Under the pieces are notes generated by a model. The model was not told where the DNA came from and made no database searches. It saw nothing but the letters and a program-made list of their open reading frames with translations. The translations under genes were made by a program, and so were the position numbers. A stretch of 28,153 bases of DNA from a virus: the IMG/VR virus record IMGVR_UViG_3300039044_000008, positions 1-28,153 of that record; one strand, written 5' to 3'. Positions 12,788-27,592 of this stretch are shown in pieces; the stretch's first letter is position 1, and each line of letters opens with the position of its first letter.

Positions 12788-13302
12788 TGGGCAAACGAAA
12801 CAAAAAGAAGAACAAGGTGCAACCCAAACCCACGCAAGGCAAGGGCTACACCTATCGCCGCAAGAGGGTGTTCTGCACTATCGAATTGTTCAAGACGCAA
12901 GAGCATGCGTTTGAGGTCGAGATGCGCAAGCCGCGCTCATCCCGAACGCAGGATTTGCGCAACGCCACACCGAACTTTCAACGGGCAATGATCCTGTTGG
13001 GCCAGCTGCTCCAGGGCGAAGAGCCAGACATCGACGACGTGATGATTCCCGGCTCGGAGATCGAAGAGATCGCCAAATACATGGCGGAGAACACCATCCG
13101 GTTTACCGAGCCGATCTGTGACGACGATGGCGCCCCCTTGACTTGGGCACAGATGGACGCAGAAGAGCGCGTCGATTTTTGGGAGACGCTCCCATCCGAG
13201 GAACTGCGCCACGCCTACGGCGCCTATCTCGGCGAAGTGATGGTCGATCAAGACCCCGAACTTCGCAAACAACTCCAGACCTTCAAGGATAAAGCTGCCT
13301 GA
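12787..13302 (+). CDS. tail assembly protein (putative)
   Basis: 171 residues; TGATG junctions on both sides. It begins with an extremely basic segment (MGKRNKKKNKVQPKPTQGKG) and continues with strands and helices (FQRAMILLGQLLQGEEPDIDDV, TWAQMDAEERVDFWETLPSEELRHAYGAYLGEV), ending in a charged tail. Its position directly before the tape measure gene matches the second tail chaperone of long-tailed phages. The family is not recognised. Confidence 0.5.
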   Translation: MGKRNKKKNKVQPKPTQGKGYTYRRKRVFCTIELFKTQEHAFEVEMRKPRSSRTQDLRNATPNFQRAMILLGQLLQGEEPDIDDVMIPGSEIEEIAKYMAENTIRFTEPICDDDGAPLTWAQMDAEERVDFWETLPSEELRHAYGAYLGEVMVDQDPELRKQLQTFKDKAA

Positions 13303-15716
13303 TGGCACAAGACGTCACAATCGTTATTCGCGCCAAGGATGCCGCATCCAAAGCGCTCGCCGCCACGGGCGCGCTGCTCGGCAAGATGGGCAACAAGGCC
13401 AAGGGCGCAGGTGCCGAAGCGCTCAAGACGGCCAAAGGGATGGAACTCATGGCAGCCGGGGGCGCCGTCCTCGGTGGCGTGTTGGGCGTTCTGACTGTCG
13501 CCATTACGGGCACAACCGCCGCCATGGCAGGTCTGTACAAAATCGGTCAGAAGGCGCTTGGCGCATGGGAAGAGCAAGAGGGCGTCAACGCAGACCTTGC
13601 CGACTCCTTGTCACGCGCAGGCGTCGAGGCCAACAACCTGCAAAGCGAGTTCGATGAACTCAACAAGATGGCAGGCGAGTTCTCCGTCAAGACGATGTTC
13701 GGCGATGAGGACATTCTGCGCAGCATGTCCAAGTACGTGCAGCTGACGGGTGATGCAAAGATCTCACAACAGGAACTGTCCACCATCCTCGGCATCGCCG
13801 CCAAGACCAAGCGCGACACCACGAGCGCAGCGGAACTCTACGCCAAGGCATTGAAGGGCGAGATCGGTCCATTAAAGGACGTGACCTCGATCACCAAGGA
13901 ACAGGAAGAGCGCCTCAATGCCATTGTAGATCCCACCAAGCGTGCAGCCAAAGCGCAGGAGATTTTGGCCGCACAATTCGCGGGTGTCGCAGAAGCCGCC
14001 AACCCGACCTTCAACGCGATCAAAAACCTGGAGGATGCACAGGGCGATCTGTGGCAAATGATGGGCAGCGTGATCGAACGATCCGGCGCCATCCCCATCG
14101 TGCTCAGCCCTGTCACCAAGGCGTTTCGCGCGGTGGAGGCATGGGTCGATAAGAACCACGTGACGCTGCAACGGTACGTCATCGATGGGGTGTTGTTTGC
14201 CGTCGGTGTGTTCCGTGGTTTCCTGACCATCCTCAAGGGCGCCAACCAACTGCTTGGCGAGGGATACCGCGCGGTCAAAGCCGTTGGTCTGGCTTATGAG
14301 TTTCTCTATGAGATGGTCAAGATCGCAGGCAACGGCATGGTGGACTTTATCACTGGCGCGTTGTCCACGGTCATCGAAGGTTTTGACAAGTTTCTCGCGA
14401 AAGCCGAGAGCGTGGCGAGCTTTGTGTCTGACGACATGGCGCTCAAGATCACGAAGGCGCGTGGTGTGTTCAAGGGCGTCAAAGAAGACCTCGACGCCAT
14501 CGGCAAGGCAAGTGTTGCCAACACCACGCAGAACCTCAAGAACATGGAAGCGATCACCAAGCAGGTCAAGGAACTGGAAGAGGACGACTCGGTCATGTTC
14601 CAAGCATTCGATAAAGGTCTGGACCGCATCATCAACAAGACCATTGAGGTAGACCGCAAGCTACTGGATGCCAAGAAGAACGCCAGCAAGCCCACCGTTG
14701 GCGCGGCAGTGCAAACCAAGGGCAAGAAGGACGGCGGCCTGAGCAAGGCACGCAAGGACGCGGCGGACCTCGCGCGGCGCAATGAACTGGCGAAGCGTCA
14801 ACTGGCGATCCTCAACGAAACGAACGAAACGCGCAAGGCATCGCTTGAGTTGCAGCTGAAGATCTACGAGATCACATCGAACAAGCAACTGACCGCGATG
14901 GAGCGAAAGAAAGAGGCCCGCAAGGCAGAACTCGATTACGAGAAGACGCTGGCAGACCTGCAAAAGAAACGATTCGAGGCCGAAAAGAAGCGCGCCGAAG
15001 AGGCGAAGAAAGAGCAAGAGGAACGCAACAAGCTCATCATGGCGCAGATGCAGCGCGAGAACGCTGCATTGACCGCGCTGTCTCAGGGGCTTGGCAGGCT
15101 GGTTCAGGGCGCCGATGGCGTCAACATGGTCGCGGCAGGCTTCGAGCATTTGATCAACCTCACGGCAGAAGCCAACAGGTTGCAGGCCGAGTACAACACC
15201 GGCGTGATCACGGGCTCGCAAGCGGTCAGTCAGGCGTTCAGCATGGCGGCTGGCGCGGCGGCGGTCTTCGCCGAACAGATGGGCGCCACGGCCAAAGAGC
15301 AAGCGGTCATCCTGTCGCTGTTTGAACTGGCAGCGTCGGTCGCATCATTCGCGGCGGGCGATGTCTTCGGCGGTGCACAGCACGCAGCTGCATCGGCGAT
15401 GTATGCCACGGTTGCGGCGACCTCCAGTTCCGCACCGGCGTCAGCAGGCGCAGGGTCTGCCGGGTCATCCGGCGGCGGCTCGCGCGGCGGTGGCGGTCCT
15501 TCAGTCAAGGATGAGCGCGAGAAGTCAGCTGAGATGCTCGCGGAGAAGTTGGGCGCCGTCCTCGGCGGTGGCAACACCATCAACGTCTTCTATGACGACC
15601 GCTCCACCAACCTGAGCAATGACCCACGCACGGGCGATCAACTGCTTGACGTGGTCGATGGTGCCGCAAAGCGCCGTGGCATTGACCTCAAATCCAACAA
15701 GTATCGGAGGAACTGA
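13302..15716 (+). CDS. tail tape measure protein
   Basis: 804 residues. It sets tail length and is ejected into the host envelope. The N-terminal opening DVTIVIRAKDAASKALAATGALLGKM is typical. A hydrophobic Gly/Ala segment (about residues 49-80, GGAVLGGVLGVLTVAITGT) and a second around 290-310 are membrane-active candidates. Long Lys/Glu/Ala coiled coils cover roughly 490-580. The region near 650-720 is Ala-rich and followed by a Ser/Gly linker (GSAGSSGGGSRGGGG). It is the largest gene after the tail assembly genes, as expected. If tube rise per residue is as usual (about 0.15 nm), the tail would be roughly 120 nm. Confidence 0.9.
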   Translation: MAQDVTIVIRAKDAASKALAATGALLGKMGNKAKGAGAEALKTAKGMELMAAGGAVLGGVLGVLTVAITGTTAAMAGLYKIGQKALGAWEEQEGVNADLADSLSRAGVEANNLQSEFDELNKMAGEFSVKTMFGDEDILRSMSKYVQLTGDAKISQQELSTILGIAAKTKRDTTSAAELYAKALKGEIGPLKDVTSITKEQEERLNAIVDPTKRAAKAQEILAAQFAGVAEAANPTFNAIKNLEDAQGDLWQMMGSVIERSGAIPIVLSPVTKAFRAVEAWVDKNHVTLQRYVIDGVLFAVGVFRGFLTILKGANQLLGEGYRAVKAVGLAYEFLYEMVKIAGNGMVDFITGALSTVIEGFDKFLAKAESVASFVSDDMALKITKARGVFKGVKEDLDAIGKASVANTTQNLKNMEAITKQVKELEEDDSVMFQAFDKGLDRIINKTIEVDRKLLDAKKNASKPTVGAAVQTKGKKDGGLSKARKDAADLARRNELAKRQLAILNETNETRKASLELQLKIYEITSNKQLTAMERKKEARKAELDYEKTLADLQKKRFEAEKKRAEEAKKEQEERNKLIMAQMQRENAALTALSQGLGRLVQGADGVNMVAAGFEHLINLTAEANRLQAEYNTGVITGSQAVSQAFSMAAGAAAVFAEQMGATAKEQAVILSLFELAASVASFAAGDVFGGAQHAAASAMYATVAATSSSAPASAGAGSAGSSGGGSRGGGGPSVKDEREKSAEMLAEKLGAVLGGGNTINVFYDDRSTNLSNDPRTGDQLLDVVDGAAKRRGIDLKSNKYRRN

Positions 15717-16615
15717 TGGCATACGGTCAGGACAGATGGTTGTATCCCATCACCATCGACTCCAGTAACAATACGATCGAATGGCGCGAAGACCCCGGCG
15801 GCGGCATGACGCTGCTCACCACGACGATCACGGCGGGCACATACTATTGCCACAATGATGCGACGCTCAACAGCACCTACCCCTCGCTGTACATCGCGAT
15901 CAAGGCAGCCATGGAAGCCGAAAGCACATCCAGCGCGCTGGGCTTGTCTTACACCTTCGAAGCGATCACCCCGACATCCTCGACGGCGCAGACCCTTGGC
16001 GGGCTTCGCATCACATCCACCGATGCGTGGGAGATGGCGTTGTTTGCAGACATCCACAAGACCGGCGCGCTGGGATTTGTGGAGGACACGGGCTATCTGG
16101 CAAGCGATGGCTCCGACCGGATCGACTCGCCATATACCATTCGCGGTGTGTGGATGCCGCCGGAATGGGCGACGGACAAGCGATCAAGACCTGTGCGCAC
16201 GTTGAGCGAATCGACCGAGTACACTGAGCACGCCGATGCCTACAGCACAGACCGGGGCACCCGGCGCATTCGGACATTCATCTATGAGCACATCACCGCC
16301 GCGCACGTGTACGCCACGCGAGGCAATGACGCGGGCTACGCCAACACGGGCGAGCTTGCGCAGTATGACGTGCATAACGCATTTGAAGACCTGTGGACGG
16401 CATGGGGTGACGGCGCCGCGATCATCGTGGTGCATGATGTCAACCCCAACACACTCGACGTGATCGGCGAGGGGTACGAAGTCGTCAAGCGCGCAAACAT
16501 CGAAGTCGCGCGCGACTTCAATAACGCCATCGACCTGATGATTACAGGCGGTGAATACTATCGCATCACGCTGCCATGCGTGATCACCAACGCTGGAGAC
16601 TACGTTGGCCAGTAG
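15716..16615 (+). CDS. minor tail protein (putative distal tail)
   Basis: 299 residues from ATG 15716, with a strong GGAGG five bases before it. The start MAYGQDRWLYPITIDSSNNTIEW, the strand-rich body and its position between tape measure and tail-tip genes suggest a distal tail or tip-joining protein. It includes a region with TDRGTRRIRTFIYEHITAAHVYATRG. No named family is recognised. It overlaps the next gene by 11 bases. Confidence 0.6.
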   Translation: MAYGQDRWLYPITIDSSNNTIEWREDPGGGMTLLTTTITAGTYYCHNDATLNSTYPSLYIAIKAAMEAESTSSALGLSYTFEAITPTSSTAQTLGGLRITSTDAWEMALFADIHKTGALGFVEDTGYLASDGSDRIDSPYTIRGVWMPPEWATDKRSRPVRTLSESTEYTEHADAYSTDRGTRRIRTFIYEHITAAHVYATRGNDAGYANTGELAQYDVHNAFEDLWTAWGDGAAIIVVHDVNPNTLDVIGEGYEVVKRANIEVARDFNNAIDLMITGGEYYRITLPCVITNAGDYVGQ

Positions 16616-19600
16616 AGTTTTGACGGGCATTGCCATTGAGGGCGTCGGCACAGATACCACCAAAACAGACGGGTTGTTCCTGTTCTATTCTGGCGGCGAT
16701 CTGGCGTTGCACACATCCTCCAACCGTGAGGGCCGCGCAGCATTGCGCGCGTTGCCACAGGGCACGTCTACTCGCGTCAATCCCTACACCGGGGATGTGA
16801 CCACCAACGCCTTGGCCTTCGAGGTCAGCGCATCCAACACGCTGGCGCCTTTGCTCATGAGCGAGCAGCGCCGCGCGCCGTACACGTTGGGCGCGGATCT
16901 GACCGACAGCGCCACGACGGTCAATATTGGCACGGTGTCACTGGATAACCTCCCCATCTGGATTGGCGATGAAACCATCTTGCTGGGCACCGATTCTGGC
17001 AGCGGCGTGTACACCGGATGTACCCGTGGCTTGTGGGGATCACCAGCGCAAGCACACGACGCAGGCGATGGTGTTTACCGTCGCGTGCCCGGATGGGCAG
17101 ATCGATTGATCACCGTCATCGAACACGACGAGGCAGATGGCAGCGAGACAGTCGTGGGTCGATACCACATCGACAACATCAGCATGGATGATACGATCAT
17201 CACCATCCAGACCTCCGAGGTGCTCAACGATTATCGCGCAGCCGAGATCAATCAGGGCGCCGAAGACCTGACCGCGTACGCCAAGAGTATGCGCATCAAC
17301 CCCAACCGCTCGATCGCGGGTGCATTGGTGGGCTACACTTCTACACTCAGGCAGGCAAATACCTCGCTTGACGCGGTGTTTCTGGAGGTCAATGGTGAAC
17401 GCATCCACCAGTTTGTCCAACGTGATGGGCTGGTCAATGCAGGCGGTAACGCATCATGGGTGTTTGAACCCTATCCGTTTGGCGAAGATGAGGTCGCCAT
17501 TGATTCACTGTACGAGGTGTTTGTCATCTGGCGCCAGTCAGGCAGCGGCTCGAATGTCGTGGGTGACTTTTCCACTGAAGATCTGACCTACCCCGCACAC
17601 CCGCTCGCCATCGCGCTGGCATTGCTCACATCCACGGGCGCAGGCTACAACGGATCGTATGACGTGCTGGGCGAACAGTGGGGGTTGGGGCTGGATTACA
17701 TCTCGTGGACCCCATGGGAAACCGAGATCGCCAACACACCAGACATGTGCATCGACCAGTTGGTGCTTGGTCGTGGTGGCTCAACCGTAAATGTTTTTAC
17801 CACCATACAAGATATTTTACTCAAGCCGTTCGGCTATTTCCTGAGCATCACCAATGATGGATTGCTCACCATTGAACGACTGAGGCTCCCCACGCTGATT
17901 GATTGGCAGGCCGCTCAGACATCCAGCATTGACGCATACATCGACGGCCCGCTGCGCATGGACCGCGCGATGGGTGAAATCAGCGACCGCATCGTCGCGA
18001 ACGTCGGCGGCGCAGGCACAGGCCAGACCACCACTGTCAACGTGCGCACACCGGAGCGCTCCACACGTCGAGCCAAACTGGCAGACGCGCGAGAGTTTGA
18101 ACTCAACTACACCGCGATCAACCCCAAATCGTTGGGCATCGTGCCCGGCGCACAGGCAGGCGCACTCACCAACGCGCTCGTGAACCTGCTTCAACTCAAC
18201 CTCGACGCGGTGCCACGGCTGTTCGTGCGTGTGGGCAACCCTGCCACGACGGGTGAAACCGACTACAACCACGGGCGCATCATTCGCATTAATGACCTGG
18301 CGAACCTGCAAGACGCATGGATCGTCGATGCCAATGGCAACCGGGTTGATGATCTGTCCGAGATTGACTTCGCGGGCATGATCATTGGTCGTGAGTATGA
18401 CCTTGATCGCCGCACGTACACACTTGAGTTGTTGTTCCTGTCCTACCACGTCGGGCAGTTCATTCGACTGCGCGCACCATCGGGCGTGATCGCCTCGGTG
18501 GACAGCGGCACCAATACCATCACGTTGGACGCCACGACATTTAGCGCATCGGATGCCGCGACGTTCAACGATGGCGATGATATTGAGATCTGGACCGTCG
18601 ATGGCGCCAAGTGGGCAAGCTCGGTTGTGCGTTCGGTTGACAATGTGTCAGGCAACAACCTGGAGCTTGACGCATGGTTTGGTGCAGACCCATCGGCGGG
18701 CATGATCGTCCGCCTCGCCAACAGTGCAAGCTACAACAACACATCCATTTATAGCCTGACCGGCCGGCCTTACACGTACCTCGCGGATGCCAACGATGAG
18801 ATCGACGAGAACGGCACGACGGTAGACGCAGACATCTACGGCACCAACATCTACGGCGGTGCCTTCAACACCAACAAGGGGCTTGAGCCAGACTTTATTG
18901 GCATCGATGACGAATCATTCGATACCACGTCGAGCGACTGTCCTCCGTTGGATACATGGTTGGAACACAGGCTGCGAGCCAACGCGCAGCACCTCATCAC
19001 GCAGGGCAATCAGGTGTCGTGGGCGCCGTTGTCCGGTCGATCAAACGACTTGAGCGATGCCACAGGAAAGAACAATATCCGCCCTTATGCCAGCATCAAC
19101 ACCTCAACGATCATGTTTGTGCCATGGCTAATCGAGCCGGGACTCAAGCAGGTCTCGATTCATGGCATCGGGCGTGTGGGTGATGAGGGCGGCACCAACA
19201 GCTACATCACAAAGCTGCGCCTCGACACGCAGCAACTGACCGGCGAGCAAGAGTACATCGAAGTCCTCGCCAACACAGAAGCGGACACACCCGAGTTTCA
19301 ACCATTCGAGGTGGCGTTGAGCTATGACACGGCGGTGCAGTTCCGCGAGGTCGCACCGCTTGAGTTGTGGGGTAACGCACCATCGCAAAACAATGCAACC
19401 GCCGGATCTGCCTCGCTTGGTTCGGGTGATGTACGTGGACCCATTCTCTACAGCGACGCGAATTTCTACGCGGACAGCGCAGCCACACGCCCAAATACCA
19501 GCGCATTGGATACGATGTACACCGTGCCCGGCGCAGGCAATGCAGGCGTGCGCATGGATCATATGCAGACGCGCGACTACGGCAGCGACGAGGGGATGGT

Positions 19601-20492
19601 CACATACCCACCGCCTGTGGCCGCCTCGACTGTGCAAAAATACTACATGAGTTATTTGCAGCTGCGTGGCCTGGAGGTGCAACAAACCTTTCAGGACACC
19701 ACCGCGCAGGCAAAGAGCGAACTCGAAGCAGGTAAACCCGAGCTTGGTGAGATCGCCGGTTTGCACATCATCCGTACCAACGCGGTCCAGAAGCGCGCCA
19801 AACCCTTGTGGATTGGACCACGCGGGCAGGCAGCACCGAGCGAGGATGGTTGGCCCACCGGTTACACCACGCGGTTTGCGCGGATTGCAGGCGACGCAAC
19901 AGACACCGCTGTGTTTTCTGCCAACGTGTTTCCATCCACGGACAACTGCACGCTGCTGGTGATGGCCTACGTCCTGCCATGCTTTGACCAGACGATCTAC
20001 AACCGAGGCTCATTGTTTGGTCTGGTTGAGGAAGAATCCATCGAAGGTCACTGGAACATTGGCGCCAAGGTGCACGAACTCCAGACCGGCGAGGACTGGA
20101 GCACAGCAACCGAGCTTGGCAACTCGCTCGACACACTGTCAGGCAATGACCCCATTCCTCTTGTGTTGCAGCATTTGCCATTTGACCTCACGGGCCAGAT
20201 CCCCGCGCTGCTCACGGAGTTTATGGTGCGCAAGGGCATCGACTCGGCAAATGGATTTGCGATGAAAGAGGGTCAGTTGTTCGCGCCAGACATCCCGTAT
20301 CTGACGCTCGTGCAGACGACGGTGGACATCACCCGCGACGCATCAGGCGAGTTGCCCTGCCGGGTGCAGTTGCACCTTGACTACGATACGCGTGACACAG
20401 CGAACTACTTCAACAACACGGACACGGATTTGGACACCAGCGATGCGCTCATCACAGTGGTGGGCGCCTCTATTTGGGAGCTTCCACAGTAG
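16605..20492 (+). CDS. large tail-tip / hub protein
   Basis: 1295 residues from TTG 16605; GGAG lies seven bases upstream. N-terminal 300 residues: tail-module-like strands with YTLGADLTDSATTVNIGTV and WIGDETILLGTDSGSGVYTGCTRGLWG. The middle (about 300-620) looks like a hub domain (QDILLKPFGYFLSITNDGLLTIERLRLP, REYDLDRRTYTLELLFLSYHVGQFIRL). The C-terminal half is Thr/Asn/Asp-rich and fibre-like (SSIYSLTGRPYTYLADAND, NTSALDTMYTVPGAG). It probably plays the combined role of tip hub and attachment protein, as lambda gpJ does. The assignment rests on size, order and composition. Confidence 0.75.
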   Translation: MASRVLTGIAIEGVGTDTTKTDGLFLFYSGGDLALHTSSNREGRAALRALPQGTSTRVNPYTGDVTTNALAFEVSASNTLAPLLMSEQRRAPYTLGADLTDSATTVNIGTVSLDNLPIWIGDETILLGTDSGSGVYTGCTRGLWGSPAQAHDAGDGVYRRVPGWADRLITVIEHDEADGSETVVGRYHIDNISMDDTIITIQTSEVLNDYRAAEINQGAEDLTAYAKSMRINPNRSIAGALVGYTSTLRQANTSLDAVFLEVNGERIHQFVQRDGLVNAGGNASWVFEPYPFGEDEVAIDSLYEVFVIWRQSGSGSNVVGDFSTEDLTYPAHPLAIALALLTSTGAGYNGSYDVLGEQWGLGLDYISWTPWETEIANTPDMCIDQLVLGRGGSTVNVFTTIQDILLKPFGYFLSITNDGLLTIERLRLPTLIDWQAAQTSSIDAYIDGPLRMDRAMGEISDRIVANVGGAGTGQTTTVNVRTPERSTRRAKLADAREFELNYTAINPKSLGIVPGAQAGALTNALVNLLQLNLDAVPRLFVRVGNPATTGETDYNHGRIIRINDLANLQDAWIVDANGNRVDDLSEIDFAGMIIGREYDLDRRTYTLELLFLSYHVGQFIRLRAPSGVIASVDSGTNTITLDATTFSASDAATFNDGDDIEIWTVDGAKWASSVVRSVDNVSGNNLELDAWFGADPSAGMIVRLANSASYNNTSIYSLTGRPYTYLADANDEIDENGTTVDADIYGTNIYGGAFNTNKGLEPDFIGIDDESFDTTSSDCPPLDTWLEHRLRANAQHLITQGNQVSWAPLSGRSNDLSDATGKNNIRPYASINTSTIMFVPWLIEPGLKQVSIHGIGRVGDEGGTNSYITKLRLDTQQLTGEQEYIEVLANTEADTPEFQPFEVALSYDTAVQFREVAPLELWGNAPSQNNATAGSASLGSGDVRGPILYSDANFYADSAATRPNTSALDTMYTVPGAGNAGVRMDHMQTRDYGSDEGMVTYPPPVAASTVQKYYMSYLQLRGLEVQQTFQDTTAQAKSELEAGKPELGEIAGLHIIRTNAVQKRAKPLWIGPRGQAAPSEDGWPTGYTTRFARIAGDATDTAVFSANVFPSTDNCTLLVMAYVLPCFDQTIYNRGSLFGLVEEESIEGHWNIGAKVHELQTGEDWSTATELGNSLDTLSGNDPIPLVLQHLPFDLTGQIPALLTEFMVRKGIDSANGFAMKEGQLFAPDIPYLTLVQTTVDITRDASGELPCRVQLHLDYDTRDTANYFNNTDTDLDTSDALITVVGASIWELPQ

Positions 20493-20925
20493 GCGTACAA
20501 CCCAACGCGGGGTCAATGGATTCGGGACCATCCATGGACGCAGGCACCCAAACGATCAACTCGACGGGTGCGGTGTCTGGATGGTTGCATCCCTGACCGT
20601 TGTACCCATTGAAACCAAACTGCACGGGCTTGCCTGGATCGCGCCCGCCACAACGGGTCCACTTCCCATCCGCCTTGTAGTGGAAGTCCCCAAAGTATTC
20701 GAGTTTGAGTTCGGATTCTGGCACGGGTTCGCCATCGCGCAACGGGTGCCCCATAAAGAACGAGAGTTTGTCGAATGACACGGGCTGCATCAGGTAGTCG
20801 GGCGTGTCCTTATCGCATGTCAACTGCACCAGATAATCGTCACGCACGTCGGGTTCGGTTGGCTCGGGGTCTTCACCACAGCCCACCACCAGGGCGGCAC
20901 ACATCAACAACACTAAAACTCGCAT
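20470..20925 (-). CDS. antisense lipoprotein (phage moron candidate)
   Basis: 151 residues on the minus strand. The signal peptide MRVLVLLMCAALVVGC ends in a clean lipobox LVVG|C, followed by the usual acidic/Pro linker (GEDPEPTEPDVRDD); lipidation would anchor it in a membrane. The mature part holds further cysteines (LTCDKD, RCGGRD, QGCNHPD, LGCTP) that could form disulfides. The ATG at 20925 follows TGAGGTGATC, a near-perfect complement to the 16S tail; GTG 20931 is the alternative. Its 3' end overlaps the tail-tip gene by 23 bases, converging. A TTGACA promoter lies upstream. Superinfection exclusion or lysogenic conversion is inferred from layout only. Confidence 0.75.
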   Translation of the reverse strand: MRVLVLLMCAALVVGCGEDPEPTEPDVRDDYLVQLTCDKDTPDYLMQPVSFDKLSFFMGHPLRDGEPVPESELKLEYFGDFHYKADGKWTRCGGRDPGKPVQFGFNGYNGQGCNHPDTAPVELIVWVPASMDGPESIDPALGCTPTVEAPK

Positions 20926-20935
20926 GATCACCTCA
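20926..20935 (-). promoter_or_regulatory. extended ribosome binding site of the antisense lipoprotein
   Basis: Read on the minus strand, TGAGGTGATC directly precedes ATG 20925 and complements the 3' tail of 16S rRNA over about nine bases. On the plus strand this stretch abuts the ATG at 20935 of the next tail gene and there reads as the 16S tail itself, so it cannot serve the plus-strand gene. Confidence 0.6.
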
Positions 20936-21525
20936 TGAGCAAAACACTACCATCGACATATCCAAGCGTGGGGCCGGGCGAGTTCATGTCTGCCCAACCC
21001 ATACAGGCAGATGATTGGCACAATACTGCACAATGTCAACACCACATTTACCAAAGGATCGGATCACGATCAACAATCTACCTATCTGGCGATGACCCGT
21101 TTGAAACCACGAGCGGCTCATACACCACCACAGACGATAACGACGCAGACCACCCCCTGACACTCAATCAGGGGGTGATTCGTTTGACCCGCGAGATGAT
21201 CGACTCAGGCGCGGTCAAGCATGAGTTGGTCTTCGTGGGTGTCGGCAAAGACATCGACGTGCAAGTCAGCGTGTTCGCGCCTGATAGCGGCACAAGCGCG
21301 CTCACCACATTCACCGCATCGCGCGCGTCGTCCACCGTCGATCGTTTCGAGGGGTCCGTTCTGCTCACCAAGGCGCAGGCAGACGCGGGCGGTGTCTCAG
21401 GCAGTGACCCGCGCGTGCTGTTGGTGAGCATCGAAGTCAAGGCAAACACCACGAGCGCCGCATTATATCAGGCGTTCGTCTATGAATCCTACATCAGCGC
21501 GTCCGAATTGCCGGACGGCACATAA
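20935..21525 (+). CDS. tail / fibre-associated protein (putative)
   Basis: 196 residues from ATG 20935. No Shine-Dalgarno precedes this ATG, since the spot is used by the opposite-strand lipoprotein. ATG 20986 (MSAQPIQADDW) is an alternative with GGGCGAG nearby, but the longer N-terminus, PSTYPSVGPGEFMSAQPIQADDWHNTAQC, looks like a normal phage virion protein start. The body is Thr/Ser/Asp-rich and strand-like, with DIDVQVSVFAPDSGTSALTTF. It contains the lipoprotein promoter (21011-21039) and a strong hairpin (21151-21177). It is likely part of the tail tip or fibre. Confidence 0.6.
   Translation: MSKTLPSTYPSVGPGEFMSAQPIQADDWHNTAQCQHHIYQRIGSRSTIYLSGDDPFETTSGSYTTTDDNDADHPLTLNQGVIRLTREMIDSGAVKHELVFVGVGKDIDVQVSVFAPDSGTSALTTFTASRASSTVDRFEGSVLLTKAQADAGGVSGSDPRVLLVSIEVKANTTSAALYQAFVYESYISASELPDGT
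21011..21039 (-). promoter_or_regulatory. sigma70-like promoter driving the antisense lipoprotein
   Basis: On the minus strand: a perfect TTGACA -35 (21039-21034), 17-base spacer, and AATCAT -10 (21016-21011; four of six matches to TATAAT). Transcription would begin near 21004, leaving a leader of about 80 bases before ATG 20925. It lies wholly inside the coding sequence of the plus-strand gene at 20935. It fits autonomous expression of a moron from a repressed prophage. Confidence 0.55.
21151..21177. repeat. perfect 10-bp inverted repeat inside a coding region
   Basis: CACCCCCTGA (21151-21160) and TCAGGGGGTG (21168-21177) form a perfect GC-rich stem with a seven-base loop. No T-run follows on either strand, so it is not a standard terminator. 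It sits just upstream (in minus-strand sense) of the lipoprotein promoter. Confidence 0.6.
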
Positions 21526-21928: not shown

Positions 21929-22708
21929 ATGCCAGTCATTCGATCATTTGCCGCTGAGATAAGCGGCGCGAGTGGAGGGGGTGGTGGAGGCGGATTCGAC
22001 CCGTTTGACTACTTTGGCGCGCGCATGGTTGATTGGGCGTGGGCACCATACGAGGGGCCAAACACAGCGCCAGACAACGTGTCCGCCAACAAGCGCACGG
22101 GCAGCATCGCCTACGGCGACACCATGCCAGAGATCAGCAACTATGCAGGCGGGGACTATCACACGAGTGTGTTTACCGGTGCCGAGCTGGTCGATGGTGG
22201 CAGCGGCCCGGACTACTTCCTTGTGGCAGGCGGGACGTCCTACGAACAGTCCACGTCCCCCGTGGCGATCGGGGATGACCTGAGCTTCGTTGATGTGTTT
22301 GGCCGCACCTCGTTGACGCAGGGCGGCTACCTCTACCAGCATACGACGTTCTCACCATCGGTGCTCATCCGCACGAGCAGCCCATACAACATCGACTTTT
22401 TCCACAATGGCGACAACGCAGTCAAGGCCGTGGCAGACACAGACCTCCACATCCTGATCCAACACGTGGACAACGCCAACAGCAAGACCGACCACCGCTT
22501 CGATGGCGAGGTCATCGACACGGCAGCCAATATCCACGACTACGTCGCGGGTGAAACCGAGCGAGAGTTTTCTGGATACACCGGCTCAACCCGTGCGCGC
22601 GCCAAGCGCGTAGGGTGGTTCAAGATCCGCGACTTGACTGAGGCGGAGGCCGCGCTTCTGGAGACATGGATCTCCGAGCAAACAGGCATTACGTTGACCG
22701 GCCCCTGA
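21929..22708 (+). CDS. tail fibre-like protein, LamG-like fold (putative)
   Basis: 259 residues; TGAGG six bases before ATG 21929. A seven-glycine linker (residues 16-22) follows a short N-terminal arm, a usual way phage fibres attach. The remaining 235 residues have the strand pattern and ending (RVGWFKIRDLTEAEAALLETWISEQTGITLTG) of concanavalin/LamG-like sugar-binding modules. The role is probably host surface glycan binding. The 3' end overlaps the esterase gene by 43 bases, and the stop is set in GGC CCC TGA. Binding is inferred. Confidence 0.6.
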   Translation: MPVIRSFAAEISGASGGGGGGGFDPFDYFGARMVDWAWAPYEGPNTAPDNVSANKRTGSIAYGDTMPEISNYAGGDYHTSVFTGAELVDGGSGPDYFLVAGGTSYEQSTSPVAIGDDLSFVDVFGRTSLTQGGYLYQHTTFSPSVLIRTSSPYNIDFFHNGDNAVKAVADTDLHILIQHVDNANSKTDHRFDGEVIDTAANIHDYVAGETEREFSGYTGSTRARAKRVGWFKIRDLTEAEAALLETWISEQTGITLTGP

Positions 22709-23721
22709 TCGCCTCGCCCCAATCGAACGCCGTCTACCATACCACGGGGTCAGACGGTTGGGTCCGAGGCATCACCGGCACATATACTGCCGACATGACC
22801 AACCTCAAGGCGCGCCTGAACATCACGGGCAGCGAGACTTGGCATGACATCAGTGGAACAGGTGGCGAGTTCACCGTCGATATCCCCGCAAGCGTGGGCA
22901 CCGGCACGCTGGAAATCCAGGCCAATGACGGCACCCGGTTGACCCAGATCCCCTACGTGTCCGTTGGCACGTGTGATGGAGGCGTGGGTCAGTCCAATAT
23001 GAAGGGCTCGTCGGAGAACAAGCACAACTACAGCGCAAACAACAGCATCGGCCTGTACGATCCCCGCCCGACGCCCATGGCGTTGATGGTGGGCAGGACT
23101 GAGCGCGATACATGGGGCGCCGCGTATGATGAGGGGTGGATACCCGAATATCTCAACACGCAGCAAACTAGCAACAGCAGGCCGTGGGGCATGGTTCGTT
23201 TTGCGATCGGCTCCACGAAGATCTCGCAGTGGCTCAAGACGGCGCCTGTGGATGCCGCCGGGTATGGCTACAGCGTCCGGTATTATGATGAGTTGGTCCG
23301 CGCGGTGCTCGTATCGCAGGGGTTTGACCCCGCCACATACGACCCCGCCACGATGGACCCACCTATCCGGCACCTCAAGATCCAGATCGGCGAGGCGGAC
23401 GCGAAGGCGAGCACCAGCAAGGCATCATTCAAGGCAGACCTCAAACAATTCGCGGCAGACATCAACGCAGACCTTGGCGTCTCATGCGTGGTGAGCGTGC
23501 TGCAAGACCTGTTCTCCACGGGCTACGTGGCGACCGAGGCGCAGTTGATCGCGATACAGGATGCCGTCACCGAGGCCGCAGCAGAATCCGCATACATCAC
23601 CGTTGGTCCTGACTTCTCGGATGTGGTGCTTGACACCGATCCGCCAGAGCAGTCGGGCAACGTACACTTTTACACAGATACGCAGGTGGCGTTGGCTGCC
23701 TCGCGATGGAGTACCTTCTAA
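22666..23721 (+). CDS. tail-associated carbohydrate esterase (SASA / SGNH-type)
   Basis: Up to 351 residues. The catalytic domain from about residue 100 carries GGVGQSNMKG (Ser110 nucleophile), FAIGSTKISQWL (G182 block), KIQIGEADAKA (239-246; the GE(S/A)D block) and GNVHFYTD (His334). This is the order of the sialate O-acetylesterase-like SASA family (PF03629-type), which removes acetyl groups from sugars. A beta domain (about 20-98) precedes it. The usual Asp three residues before the catalytic His is Gly331 here. The start is uncertain: ATG 22666 has GGAG only two bases away, and its first 14 residues look unnatural; a frameshift from the preceding fibre gene is possible. Confidence 0.72.
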   Translation: MDLRANRHYVDRPLIASPQSNAVYHTTGSDGWVRGITGTYTADMTNLKARLNITGSETWHDISGTGGEFTVDIPASVGTGTLEIQANDGTRLTQIPYVSVGTCDGGVGQSNMKGSSENKHNYSANNSIGLYDPRPTPMALMVGRTERDTWGAAYDEGWIPEYLNTQQTSNSRPWGMVRFAIGSTKISQWLKTAPVDAAGYGYSVRYYDELVRAVLVSQGFDPATYDPATMDPPIRHLKIQIGEADAKASTSKASFKADLKQFAADINADLGVSCVVSVLQDLFSTGYVATEAQLIAIQDAVTEAAAESAYITVGPDFSDVVLDTDPPEQSGNVHFYTDTQVALAASRWSTF

Positions 23722-24416
23722 TGTGGCAATCACACAAAGGGGGCGCACAATGGCGCCTGAAATGCGACGATCGCATCGAACTCAAGGACGGTCTGGATCA
23801 CGCCACGGACGACCTCGCGCGTTACCTGACGCTCGACGGGGACAACTGCCCGCGCACCAAGGGGCAACCACGCAGCGTCGAGTTGCTGCTTGAGGACTTC
23901 GGCGAGGAACTGCACCGCGCGGCCAATGAATACAATATCCCGTTACCATGGATGATCGCGTTGGTGTTGTGCGAATCGGGCAGACTCAAGGGTTCGCGCT
24001 TGCGTCGTGATCCCGTGAGTCTTCGCCATGAGCCGGGCTATGAGTCCGACGAGGCTACACCCAGCAAGGTATCGGCGGGCCTTGGGCAGACGCTCTTGCG
24101 TACCGCGCGATACGTGGCAGGCATCCTCAAGATCAACCCGGCAGTGATGGTCAATGGCAACCTGTACGAGCAGGACCGCGCGATCAATGTGTATGACCTG
24201 TATCAACCCGCGCTGTCGCTGATGTTGATGGCGGGCTACATGGAGATCCTGGGCGACAAATGGGACATGGACCCCATCATCATTCAGGCGGCATACAACG
24301 CAGGCGGCGCATACACCTCATCGAAGAACCCGTACAACTTGCGCATGTACGGCGGGTCTGATCGCCTGATCAAATTCACCGCGTACCATAATGACGCCAT
24401 TGAGGTTCTGAAATGA
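23721..24416 (+). CDS. endolysin: lytic transglycosylase (SLT-type)
   Basis: 231 residues from ATG 23721 (TAATG junction; GGAG nine bases upstream); ATG 23706 is an alternative. Lytic transglycosylase motifs appear in order: LVLCESGRL (catalytic Glu85), SAGLGQ (118-123), and AAYNAGG (190-196). It cleaves the peptidoglycan glycan backbone. There is no signal peptide or membrane segment, so access to the wall would depend on a holin; the next gene is a candidate. An N-terminal region of about 55 residues before the domain has no clear match. It could alternatively be a virion-bound hydrolase, given its place just after the fibre genes. Confidence 0.8.
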   Translation: MWQSHKGGAQWRLKCDDRIELKDGLDHATDDLARYLTLDGDNCPRTKGQPRSVELLLEDFGEELHRAANEYNIPLPWMIALVLCESGRLKGSRLRRDPVSLRHEPGYESDEATPSKVSAGLGQTLLRTARYVAGILKINPAVMVNGNLYEQDRAINVYDLYQPALSLMLMAGYMEILGDKWDMDPIIIQAAYNAGGAYTSSKNPYNLRMYGGSDRLIKFTAYHNDAIEVLK

Positions 24417-24799
24417 GACTGCCTCATTTGCGCCAGGTGATGCGACGTGGGTTGCCTCTTTTGGTGCTCGTGCCAATCGGGATGCTCTACCTGTCGGGCT
24501 TCCTTGGCATGCTGTGGTGGCCCCCGCCATCGCTCGCAGCATACTCCACCATCATCAAAATCACAGGTATCGCTGGCCCCGAAGGGGGATTGATCCGCGT
24601 GGTTTGCGCTTTGTCCGCCCTGTTTGGCGTCGTGATGCCATGGCGTCCCGTCAGGGTGCTTTTGTATATTCCCGCGCTCGCCTCGGTCCTGCTCATTGTG
24701 TTGAGTTTTATGGATACGGGGCAGGGCTTTGCCGTGGGGGCATGGTCCGTGGGGGCCATCTGCGCCTGCATTGGACTGGTGTGTGATGCGAGTGATTGA
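24413..24799 (+). CDS. holin candidate, four transmembrane segments
   Basis: 128 residues, ATGA overlap with the endolysin gene. A basic N-terminus (MRLPHLRQVMRRG) is followed by hydrophobic stretches at about 14-36, 59-76, 81-100 and 104-124, leaving little between them. The size, topology and location directly after a cytoplasmic endolysin suit a holin that releases the enzyme through the inner membrane. No family-specific motif is visible, so other small membrane proteins remain possible. Confidence 0.6.
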   Translation: MRLPHLRQVMRRGLPLLVLVPIGMLYLSGFLGMLWWPPPSLAAYSTIIKITGIAGPEGGLIRVVCALSALFGVVMPWRPVRVLLYIPALASVLLIVLSFMDTGQGFAVGAWSVGAICACIGLVCDASD

Positions 24800-25391
24800 T
24801 GCAACAACCATAATAAATGCCCTGACACTGATCGCCACAACGCCGCCTGCCATGAAGGCCATTGAATCCGACGCATGGAGCAATCCGCGCACGTGGGCGG
24901 TGGTGGTGTTTCTGATCGCGCTCGCCACGTGGCGCGAGTGGTTCGGCGTGATCAAGCGCGTGCTGCTTGCAAGGAAGACCACCGAAATCAGCGACGAGTC
25001 CAAGGACAAGGACAAGGACCGCACGCTAGAGAGCAGCTTGTTTCAACACGTACTGGAGGAAAAGAAGGCCGCACAGGCAGACGTGCGCGCGCAAACCACG
25101 CAGACCATTGCCACGCTACAGGAAACCATCAAGCGCTTGCAGGATGAAATGGACGACATCCGCGCCGAGCGCGATCAGGCGCAGGTGGATCTCAAGGTGG
25201 AGATGCGACGACACGAGGAAACGCGCGGGCGCATGGAGGGCTACAGGAGCCAGCGCAACCAACTCAAACACATCATTCAAAAAAACCGCGACCGCATGGC
25301 GAACACCATGGGTACAGCGGCAACCATTGAAATCGACGAGATGCTGGAATTGGCAGACGAGGCCAGCTCCATTCAAACGGGGGAGTCATGA
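24786..25391 (+). CDS. membrane-anchored coiled-coil protein (lysis accessory, spanin-like)
   Basis: 201 residues from ATG 24786, overlapping the holin candidate by 14 bases. A hydrophobic segment at about 37-50 (WAVVVFLIALATW) is followed by a long charged coiled coil (84-170: HVLEEKKAAQADV, LQETIKRLQDEMDDIRAERDQ). One membrane anchor plus a coiled coil is the layout of i-spanins. However, basic residues sit right after the membrane segment (REWFGVIKRVLLARK), which would favour a cytoplasmic coiled coil, opposite to a spanin. No partner lipoprotein gene overlaps it. Confidence 0.5.
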   Translation: MRVIDATTIINALTLIATTPPAMKAIESDAWSNPRTWAVVVFLIALATWREWFGVIKRVLLARKTTEISDESKDKDKDRTLESSLFQHVLEEKKAAQADVRAQTTQTIATLQETIKRLQDEMDDIRAERDQAQVDLKVEMRRHEETRGRMEGYRSQRNQLKHIIQKNRDRMANTMGTAATIEIDEMLELADEASSIQTGES

Positions 25392-26113
25392 CCACCATAC
25401 TGCACCTGTCGGACCTGCACATCGGCGCGGACAGCAACGCGCGCAACCTTGGTCTGATCATCAATCACATCAACGCGAACTACGGCGAGGATGTGCCGAT
25501 CGCGATCACCGGTGATCTCGTGGAGACGACCAGTCACCGCATGTACAAGACGTGCGCCTCGCTGCTCAAGCGCCTGTTGCCGCGCCCCCTTTGGATTGTG
25601 CCGGGTAATCATGACCTGTGCGCCAAGGGCGTGGACATCGGGCTTGGGTTGGATGCGGACTATGACCTGTGGGAGAAATACATCAGGCCATTGATGGCGC
25701 CCACCAAGCGGCACCTGCCATACATCTGGCACCACGGCGGGCTTCAGATCGTCGGGCTCGACACCATGGCGGGCACCATGGGCGATTGGATCGCCGATAC
25801 CGCGCGCGGCGCTGTGGGCAAGAGGCAATTGTACGCGCTGACGCAGCTGCTCCAGCACACGCCCACCATTGTCATTGGGCACCATCGCGTGCATTGGGAT
25901 GACACGTGGCATCGACTGCGTGACGCGGAGGCCATGGCGCACATCATGGAGCCGCGCGCAGTGGCGTACCTGTGTGGACATCAACACAAGGAAGAGCGCG
26001 TCGAGGGCAATGGCACGGTTTATCTGGCAAGCCATCAGACCACGTACCCCGCGTTGCGATATGCGGAAGTGACCATTGGCGAGGCTATTGAAAGAAGGTG
26101 GGTGTGGTTATGA
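25388..26113 (+). CDS. calcineurin-like metallophosphoesterase
   Basis: 241 residues, ATGA overlap. The five metal-binding blocks are all present: LSDLHIG (D9, H11), ITGDLVE (D43), VPGNHDL (N74, H75), IGHHRVH (H165) and CGHQHKE (H198, H200). The architecture resembles CpdA-type cyclic nucleotide phosphodiesterases and other small two-metal phosphoesterases; the substrate cannot be read from the sequence. It has no signal peptide, so it should act in the cytoplasm. It is followed, with an ATGA overlap, by a second phosphoesterase gene. Roles in nucleotide-signal removal or DNA/RNA end processing are both possible. Confidence 0.85.
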   Translation: MTTILHLSDLHIGADSNARNLGLIINHINANYGEDVPIAITGDLVETTSHRMYKTCASLLKRLLPRPLWIVPGNHDLCAKGVDIGLGLDADYDLWEKYIRPLMAPTKRHLPYIWHHGGLQIVGLDTMAGTMGDWIADTARGAVGKRQLYALTQLLQHTPTIVIGHHRVHWDDTWHRLRDAEAMAHIMEPRAVAYLCGHQHKEERVEGNGTVYLASHQTTYPALRYAEVTIGEAIERRWVWL

Positions 26114-27549
26114 AGTTGAGAAAGAAGGTACAGCAGGCGCTCGAAGAGCACCCCGAATGGTTGCAGTTGTCCAGGCTTGGCGCGGCCAAAGAGATCATCA
26201 ACGCGGGCTATTGCGATGCGACACCTAACGCGGTGCGCAAGCAGATCAAGCGCATCCTTGATCGAGAGGATTTGCGAATGCCTCCAAAAGATACGCCCGC
26301 GCCGGTCGCGTCCGGTGTGCGTGAGTTGCAAGAGGACTACTTCTACAATGACGTCGATGACAAATATGTCATATTCGCCGGGCCTGCCAAGGGCGTCATT
26401 GATGGCGGGCTGGTCCGCGCAATCCGACAAAAATACAGCAATATGGGCATGGGCGATACAGTCAATGAACTGGCCCTTGAGTATGGGTTCACGCCTGAGT
26501 TTATCAAGGGGCTGTTGCGCGCGACCAACACCACGCACGCGAGCCTGCCGCTGACTGATGAGGAAATCGCCGCGACCATCGGCGACGAGGATGCCGAGCA
26601 CGCCGCGTTTCAGAACATGGTCATGATGCAGGCGCAGAAGCTCCACCGCAGGACGCAGAAGGAACTGTGGCGCAGAACACAGGAAGACGCGCGCAAGTGG
26701 CGTGAGTTTGAGCAAGGGCGCCTCAAGCCCCTGGTGGAACTCGTCGAGCAGCACCCGCCGCGCAGGCATGTGTTTCAGATGGCGGGTCAACCCGACGACT
26801 TCGATGTGCTGTTCAATGCCTCGGATGTGCACATTGGCGCGCTCGGCATCCATGGCGAGGGGTTGGAAGACACCCACCGCGCGCTGATGGAAACAACGGA
26901 GCGCTTGATCGAGCGCGTTGCACAGCGTGGCAGACCCCGTCGTGTGGTCGCGGTGCTCAATGGTGATTGGTTTCACGCCGATACACCACGGGGGACCACG
27001 ACGCGCGGCACTCCGCTGGACATGGCATGCACACCAGATGAGGCGTTTGGTGTGGGTTGTGATATCGCGATCGAATACATCGACCGGTTGCGCAGTCTCG
27101 GTCACACCACCGTCTACGTCGTGCGCGGCAACCATGACAACATGACCTCGCTGGCACTAAACCGCGTGCTCATTGAAGCATACAGGCGCATTGATGGCGT
27201 GGAGGTCGTCGAGGCTACGTGCGAACCGTGGCACATGATGATGCTCGGCAAGGCGCATTTGTACTTCGAGCACGGCGATGGTCCAAAGGGCGCCAAGATC
27301 ACGCCCGTCATGGCGAAGGTGGGCAAGGCCATGTGGGGTCAATGCAACCACCACTATGCGTTTACCGGACACCTGCACCACATGAAGGTGCTCGACGACT
27401 ACGGCGTGGTTCATATCCAGATGCCATCACTGGCGCAACCCGACAGGTATCACGCTAAAGGCGGGTGGTGCACCTCAACGCGCATGCAAGAGGCGTATTG
27501 TTTTGACGCGCATGGCTTTTTGTTTGACACGATCCGCGCGCATGGATAA
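26110..27549 (+). CDS. metallophosphoesterase with N-terminal helix-turn-helix region
   Basis: 479 residues from ATG 26110 (ATGA overlap; AAGGTGGG upstream). The N-terminal 225 residues are basic and helical: LSRLGAAKEIINAGYCDATPNAVRKQI (20-46) and DTVNELALEYGFTPEFIKGLLRA (116-138) look like helix-turn-helix units, and 165-215 like a coiled helix. The phosphoesterase domain follows with NASDVHIG (D239, H241), LNGDWFH (D286), VRGNHDN (N341, H342), YFEHGD (H388) and FTGHLHH (H421, H423). The layout suggests a nuclease or phosphatase directed to DNA, as in Mre11/SbcD-like enzymes, though no capping domain is seen. Last gene of the late operon, before a palindromic terminator. Confidence 0.82.
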   Translation: MKLRKKVQQALEEHPEWLQLSRLGAAKEIINAGYCDATPNAVRKQIKRILDREDLRMPPKDTPAPVASGVRELQEDYFYNDVDDKYVIFAGPAKGVIDGGLVRAIRQKYSNMGMGDTVNELALEYGFTPEFIKGLLRATNTTHASLPLTDEEIAATIGDEDAEHAAFQNMVMMQAQKLHRRTQKELWRRTQEDARKWREFEQGRLKPLVELVEQHPPRRHVFQMAGQPDDFDVLFNASDVHIGALGIHGEGLEDTHRALMETTERLIERVAQRGRPRRVVAVLNGDWFHADTPRGTTTRGTPLDMACTPDEAFGVGCDIAIEYIDRLRSLGHTTVYVVRGNHDNMTSLALNRVLIEAYRRIDGVEVVEATCEPWHMMMLGKAHLYFEHGDGPKGAKITPVMAKVGKAMWGQCNHHYAFTGHLHHMKVLDDYGVVHIQMPSLAQPDRYHAKGGWCTSTRMQEAYCFDAHGFLFDTIRAHG

Positions 27550-27592
27550 GATCTCATATAACTACTAGACGGATTCGGGTTCGGCAACGAAC

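What the first reader, a model, noticed from the sequence alone, without database searches (positions are those of the whole stretch)
20470..21039. Antisense lipoprotein with its own promoter hidden inside a tail gene
Seen: a minus-strand ORF with a clean signal peptide and lipobox (LVVG|C) lies between two plus-strand tail genes, and a TTGACA-17-AATCAT promoter sits upstream inside the plus-strand gene at 20935. Established: autonomous oppositely oriented lipoprotein genes in late phage operons (morons) can block superinfection or alter the host surface. Inference: a prophage-expressed lipoprotein of this kind, here with at least four further Cys in the mature part and no family I recognise.
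Basis: partly seen in the sequence, partly recalled or inferred. Interest (0 to 1): 0.7.

Follow-up and report, generated by a model that had tools for sequence, protein, structure and literature searches.

The report
Orphan antisense phage lipoprotein in tail module
A phage with almost no known relatives carries, backwards between two of its presumed tail genes, a real but unclassifiable lipoprotein gene, most likely used to keep further phages out of the infected cell; the arrangement is known from E. coli phages, the protein is new.

Summary
A 151-codon minus-strand gene (20925-20470; ATG directly preceded by GAGGTGATC) encodes a signal peptide, the lipobox VVG|C and a 136-residue acidic mature part with exactly four Cys besides the lipid Cys. 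It is the only lipobox ORF in 28 kb and has the best coding score of 113 minus-strand ORFs. TTGACA-17-AATCAT (21039-21011) is one of only two sites of 10/12 or better in the window on either strand.

Nothing shows a prophage: no integrase or repressor was recognised, and no related phage sharing the tail genes was found, so presence/absence could not be tested. No homologue turned up in any collection or family library searched.

Best reading: a superinfection-exclusion (SE) lipoprotein. T1 Cor and Rtp45 of phage RTP are also minus-strand lipoprotein genes just past the J-like tail-tip gene; Rtp45 and T5 Llp are shown to block the receptor from the periplasmic side. This protein has no detectable similarity to Cor or Rtp45 and is about twice their size, so it is an analogue by position and type, not a family member. 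A host-fitness cargo gene or an o-spanin remains possible.

The parts
20470..20925 (-). Lipoprotein gene, 151 aa, from ATG 20925 to stop 20472-20470; a GTG start at 20931 is possible but less likely
20878..20925 (-). Signal peptide and lipobox MRVLVLLMCAALVVG|C; predicted lipidated Cys16, followed by Gly at +2
   Evidence: pattern scan; sequence; no dedicated signal-peptide predictor was available
20926..20934 (-). Shine-Dalgarno-like GAGGTGATC directly before the ATG
21011..21039 (-). Sigma70-like promoter candidate TTGACA-17-AATCAT (10 of 12); start site expected near 21004, leader about 79 nt
16605..20492 (+). 1295-aa presumed tail-tip/central-fibre protein, convergent with the lipoprotein gene, 23-bp overlap at the 3' ends
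   Evidence: role inferred from position after the probable tape measure gene 13302-15716 (weak match, E 0.0076); no family or PDB match
20935..21525 (+). 196-aa presumed tail protein, divergent from the lipoprotein gene; start may be ATG 20986, since ATG 20935 has no convincing SD
   Evidence: no significant family

Best explanation
A real, separately transcribed phage gene for an outer-membrane lipoprotein that most likely acts as a superinfection-exclusion factor. Proposed working: the minus-strand promoter inside the next tail gene is read by host RNA polymerase; the protein is exported, lipidated at Cys16 and sorted to the outer membrane (+2 residue Gly); a probably flexible acidic tether (GEDPEPTEPDVRD) holds a small, probably disulphide-bonded domain at the periplasmic face, where it binds the receptor recognised by the phage's own tail and locks it against adsorption by further phages. 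Shown here: the gene, its coding signal, signal peptide and lipobox, its position, and the absence of homologues in the collections searched. Inferred: transcription, outer-membrane location, disulphides, receptor blocking.
For: Coding and lipobox evidence. Position and orientation match annotated or proven SE lipoproteins: T1 Cor is minus strand, distal to the J-like gp33 and the two genes after it, facing the tail operon; RTP rtp45 is minus strand, distal to the J-like rtp43; N15 Cor lies in a similar place but on the plus strand. Literature: RBP and cognate SE genes were suggested to lie directly downstream of gpJ homologues in small siphophages (PMC8594841); Rtp45 changes LptD loops so that the RBP cannot bind, and Llp has a comparable effect on FhuA (PMC12685063, PMC9586334). 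Llp and Cor carry an intramolecular disulphide (PMC9586334).
Against: No sequence similarity to Cor or Rtp45 (the weak match to Rtp45 is confined to the signal peptide region). The mature part is 136 aa, against about 57-62 for Cor and Rtp45 (from the lipobox Cys in the sequences). The 1295-aa neighbour is not shown to be J-like; the model of its N-terminal part was unusable (pLDDT 33). No relatives, so no conservation or co-variation with receptor-binding genes could be seen. The coding signal fades over the last 30 or so codons. The host is unknown, so the promoter consensus may not apply, and even a Gram-negative host is only an inference.
Confidence: 0.5

Rival explanations
1. Host-fitness cargo (moron) other than exclusion: an acquired bacterial-type lipoprotein that changes the host surface or periplasm, expressed from its own promoter independently of the lytic programme.
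For: Own promoter-like site and opposite strand; larger than the known SE lipoproteins and with a long acidic tether as in many bacterial lipoproteins; cargo genes are commonly inserted between late genes (established knowledge).
Against: No bacterial homologue in GTDB contigs by exact-peptide scan, nor a convincing one in samples of about 200-300 genomes from each of three phyla (one phylum; 52; 66); the base composition does not differ from the rest of the phage, so there is no sign of recent import.
Confidence: 0.28
2. Outer-membrane subunit of a two-component spanin (o-spanin): a lipoprotein that pairs with an inner-membrane coiled-coil protein in lysis. The window encodes an SLT-domain protein (23706-24416), a holin-like membrane protein (24413-24799) and a membrane plus coiled-coil protein (about 24789-25391) but no other lipoprotein.
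For: Only lipobox ORF of the window; no lipobox ORF of convincing o-spanin type near the lysis genes even with a looser pattern; the coiled-coil protein weakly matches Rz-like spanins (PHROG 312, E 0.009; TIGR03495, E 0.17).
Against: The spanin gene pairs surveyed are embedded, overlapping or a short distance apart (PMC6139136), not 4 kb apart on opposite strands; an antisense gene would be poorly timed for lysis; positive residues directly after the hydrophobic segment suggest that the coiled coil is cytoplasmic (sequence); coiled-coil matches are unspecific.
Confidence: 0.13
3. Chance ORF, or a region read on the plus strand; not a gene.
For: The window has long spurious minus-strand ORFs (up to 366 aa); no relatives are available to show conservation.
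Against: Best minus-strand coding score, plus frames hold 2-4 stops over the same stretch, and 442 bp would otherwise be empty in a compact genome; lipobox, SD and promoter-like site all line up.
Confidence: 0.04

Closest known systems
Rtp45, SE lipoprotein of E. coli phage RTP
   Same: Minus-strand lipoprotein gene distal to and facing the long tail-tip gene, at the border to further plus-strand genes
   Different: 76 aa; forms a same-strand pair with the proposed RBP gene rtp44; no sequence similarity beyond the signal peptide; here the neighbours' roles are unproven
Cor of phages T1 and N15
   Same: Small lipoprotein gene just past the J-like tail-tip module; on the minus strand in T1; Cys in the mature part
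   Different: 75-78 aa, two Cys besides the lipid Cys; plus strand in N15; no detectable similarity
Llp of phage T5
   Same: Phage lipoprotein gene next to the receptor-binding protein gene; intramolecular disulphide (PMC9586334)
   Different: About 61 mature residues; not aligned here because the T5 record was not found under the accession tried
o-spanins (Rz1-like and T4-like)
   Same: Outer-membrane lipoprotein of phage origin; T4-type o-spanins have conserved Cys (PMC6139136)
   Different: Lie beside or within the i-spanin gene; this gene is 4 kb from the only candidate and on the other strand
Ltp of Streptococcus phage TP-J34
   Same: Phage SE lipoprotein (PMC3952083, abstract)
   Different: Gram-positive host, cell-surface exposed; not compared here

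Membership tests
Cor/Rtp45-type SE lipoproteins | Lipoprotein signal peptide with lipobox | tested here: met
   MRVLVLLMCAALVVG|C
Cor/Rtp45-type SE lipoproteins | Sequence similarity to known members | tested here: not met
   blastp against N15 Cor, T1 Cor and Rtp45: only the signal peptide region, E 0.14; no PHROG, Pfam, NCBIfam or PADLOC family
Cor/Rtp45-type SE lipoproteins | Small size (75-78 aa precursor) | tested here: not met
   151 aa precursor, 136 aa mature
Cor/Rtp45-type SE lipoproteins | Gene just distal to the J-like tail-tip gene | tested here: inconclusive
   It follows a 1295-aa gene downstream of the probable tape measure, but no family match shows that this is J-like
Cor/Rtp45-type SE lipoproteins | Blocks adsorption to the receptor | not testable with these tools
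   needs expression in the host
o-spanin | Lipoprotein encoded within, overlapping or beside an i-spanin gene | tested here: not met
   only candidate partner at about 24789-25391, plus strand, 4 kb away
o-spanin | Needed for outer-membrane disruption in lysis | not testable with these tools
   needs a deletion mutant
Prophage moron | Own promoter, oriented independently of the late operon | tested here: inconclusive
   opposite strand and one 10/12 promoter-like site; transcription not shown
Prophage moron | Carried by a temperate phage | tested here: inconclusive
   no integrase or repressor recognised in the genes scanned, but the record may be a fragment

The most novel reading that the evidence does not exclude
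A new, larger family of receptor-locking SE lipoprotein, with a four-Cys folded domain on an acidic tether, in a phage lineage without cultured relatives, showing that the layout 'tail-tip gene plus antisense exclusion lipoprotein' arose repeatedly with unrelated proteins.
Probability: 0.3. Interest if true: 0.5.

Novelty: new variant of a known kind. Interest (0 to 1): 0.36.

Why it matters
SE lipoproteins point to the outer-membrane protein a phage uses: the locked protein is the receptor. If this orphan lipoprotein works that way, pulling down its partner would name the receptor of an uncultured phage whose host is unknown. It would also suggest that the position next to the tail-tip gene is a general hot spot for exclusion genes, which would help to find others that have no recognisable sequence.

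Tried and rejected
Homologues of the lipoprotein: exact-peptide scans of IMG/VR and GTDB contigs, tblastn on phages and plasmids, 41 terminase-related virus records, 9 genomes and phylum samples: nothing convincing. The best, G716 (L136), aligns only over residues 2-53, the signal peptide and the start of the mature part, and belongs to a different 168-aa protein. Related phages through the two flanking genes, portal, capsid, major tail protein candidate and exonuclease: none; through the terminase: 132 loci, none of which shares a tail gene with the window; the tail-tip gene was also absent from a sample of Bdellovibrionota genomes. So presence/absence between the same two genes could not be tested. 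Structure: the single-sequence model of the lipoprotein is poor (pLDDT 49.5), that of the first 600 residues of the tail-tip protein unusable; no fold search was run on them. Terminator after the gene: no minus-strand site in the scan and no unusual fold. Rejected: chance ORF. A survey of 1.8 Mb of terminase-related loci found only one other antisense lipoprotein ORF that looks real, in L071, upstream of the terminase; most of those loci do not reach the tail genes.

Full report
What is there. The window is a whole virus record of 28,153 bases. It reads as the packaging, head and tail part of a long-tailed phage: small and large terminase, portal, major head protein, a neck protein, a probable tape measure (13302-15716, weak match), then a 299-aa and a 1295-aa protein, followed by further presumed tail genes, a SASA-domain esterase, an SLT-domain protein, a holin-like protein, a coiled-coil membrane protein and two calcineurin-type phosphoesterases, all on the plus strand. 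In this block one stretch of 442 bp, between the stop of the 1295-aa gene (20492) and the start of the next (20935), has no plausible plus-strand gene. It is filled by a minus-strand ORF, 20925-20470.

Is it a gene? With codon statistics trained on the other genes, only the minus frame scores as coding (+0.28 bits per codon); the other five frames are below zero and hold 2-5 stops. Of 113 minus-strand ORFs it has the highest score. It begins with ATG directly preceded by GAGGTGATC, among the strongest Shine-Dalgarno matches of the starts checked. It starts with a signal peptide and lipobox and is the only such ORF in the window; random sequence of the same dinucleotide make-up gave none of 140 aa or more. 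The coding score fades over the last 30 codons, so the C-terminus is the less certain part.

The promoter. TTGACA-17-AATCAT (21039-21011, minus strand) lies inside the next plus-strand gene. A local scan finds as many sites as chance would give, and a pattern built on this site is matched in 22 of 100 shuffles of the whole window. Against that, only two sites of 10/12 or better exist on either strand of the window, and 0.6% of 200-bp windows hold one. The promoter is therefore plausible, not shown; the host and its consensus are unknown.

What it is not. There is no Pfam, PHROG, NCBIfam, PADLOC or PDB sequence match, no homologue in viral contigs, GTDB contigs, phages or plasmids, nor a convincing one in samples from three bacterial phyla. 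The exact-peptide scans find close relatives only, so distant homologues may exist. The phage itself is nearly an orphan: apart from the terminase, portal, head, neck, SASA, SLT and phosphoesterase genes little has recognisable relatives, and none of 132 loci that share the terminase shares a tail gene.

What it most likely does. In E. coli phage T1 the exclusion lipoprotein Cor is a minus-strand gene that faces the tail operon just past the J-like tail-tip gene and two small genes. In phage RTP, rtp44-rtp45 are a minus-strand pair directly past the J-like rtp43; Rtp44 is the proposed receptor-binding protein, and Rtp45 binds LptDE at the periplasmic side and displaces its outer loops so that the receptor-binding protein cannot bind (PMC12685063). 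In N15 Cor lies in a similar place on the plus strand. For small siphophages it was suggested that receptor-binding proteins are encoded directly downstream of gpJ homologues together with cognate exclusion proteins (PMC8594841). T5 Llp, next to the receptor-binding gene, blocks FhuA from the periplasmic side (PMC9586334). The gene described here has the same type of product, the same orientation as in T1 and RTP and, if the 1295-aa protein is the tail-tip protein, the same place. This supports exclusion as the function. It does not support membership: there is no sequence similarity to Cor or Rtp45 and the protein is about twice as long.

Rivals. A host-fitness cargo gene would look the same from sequence. 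An o-spanin is possible because the window has a membrane protein with a coiled coil and weak Rz-like matches and no other lipoprotein, but the 4-kb distance and the antisense orientation are unlike the known spanin pairs (PMC6139136).

Overall: a sound finding of a known type with an unknown protein; interest moderate.

Noticed in passing
window 1-28153: The phage is nearly an orphan: no relative of its tape measure, tail-tip or major tail protein candidate was found in the collections searched with each, and the terminase (45-48% identity at best) travels without the other genes.
   Followed up: yes
window 25388-27549: Two calcineurin-type phosphoesterase genes in tandem (241 and 483 aa); the second resembles phage 'DNA repair exonuclease' and has an extra N-terminal region of about 100 aa.
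   Followed up: partly
window 22666-23721: SASA-domain (sialic acid-specific acetylesterase-type) protein among the distal tail genes, possibly a tail-borne esterase acting on surface glycans.
   Followed up: no
window 24789-25391: Membrane segment followed by a long coiled coil, weak Rz-like spanin matches, but no o-spanin beside it.
   Followed up: partly
window 27524-27552: The only other strong promoter-like site of the window, plus strand (TTGACA-17-TAAGAT), at the end of the second phosphoesterase gene.
   Followed up: no
window 20935-20986: The plus-strand gene read from ATG 20935 may start at ATG 20986; the former lacks a convincing SD and lies 9 bp from the divergent lipoprotein start.
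   Followed up: partly
L071 4176-5018 (-): An unrelated 280-aa antisense lipoprotein ORF about 5 kb upstream of the terminase in another virus record; could be host DNA or cargo.
   Followed up: no
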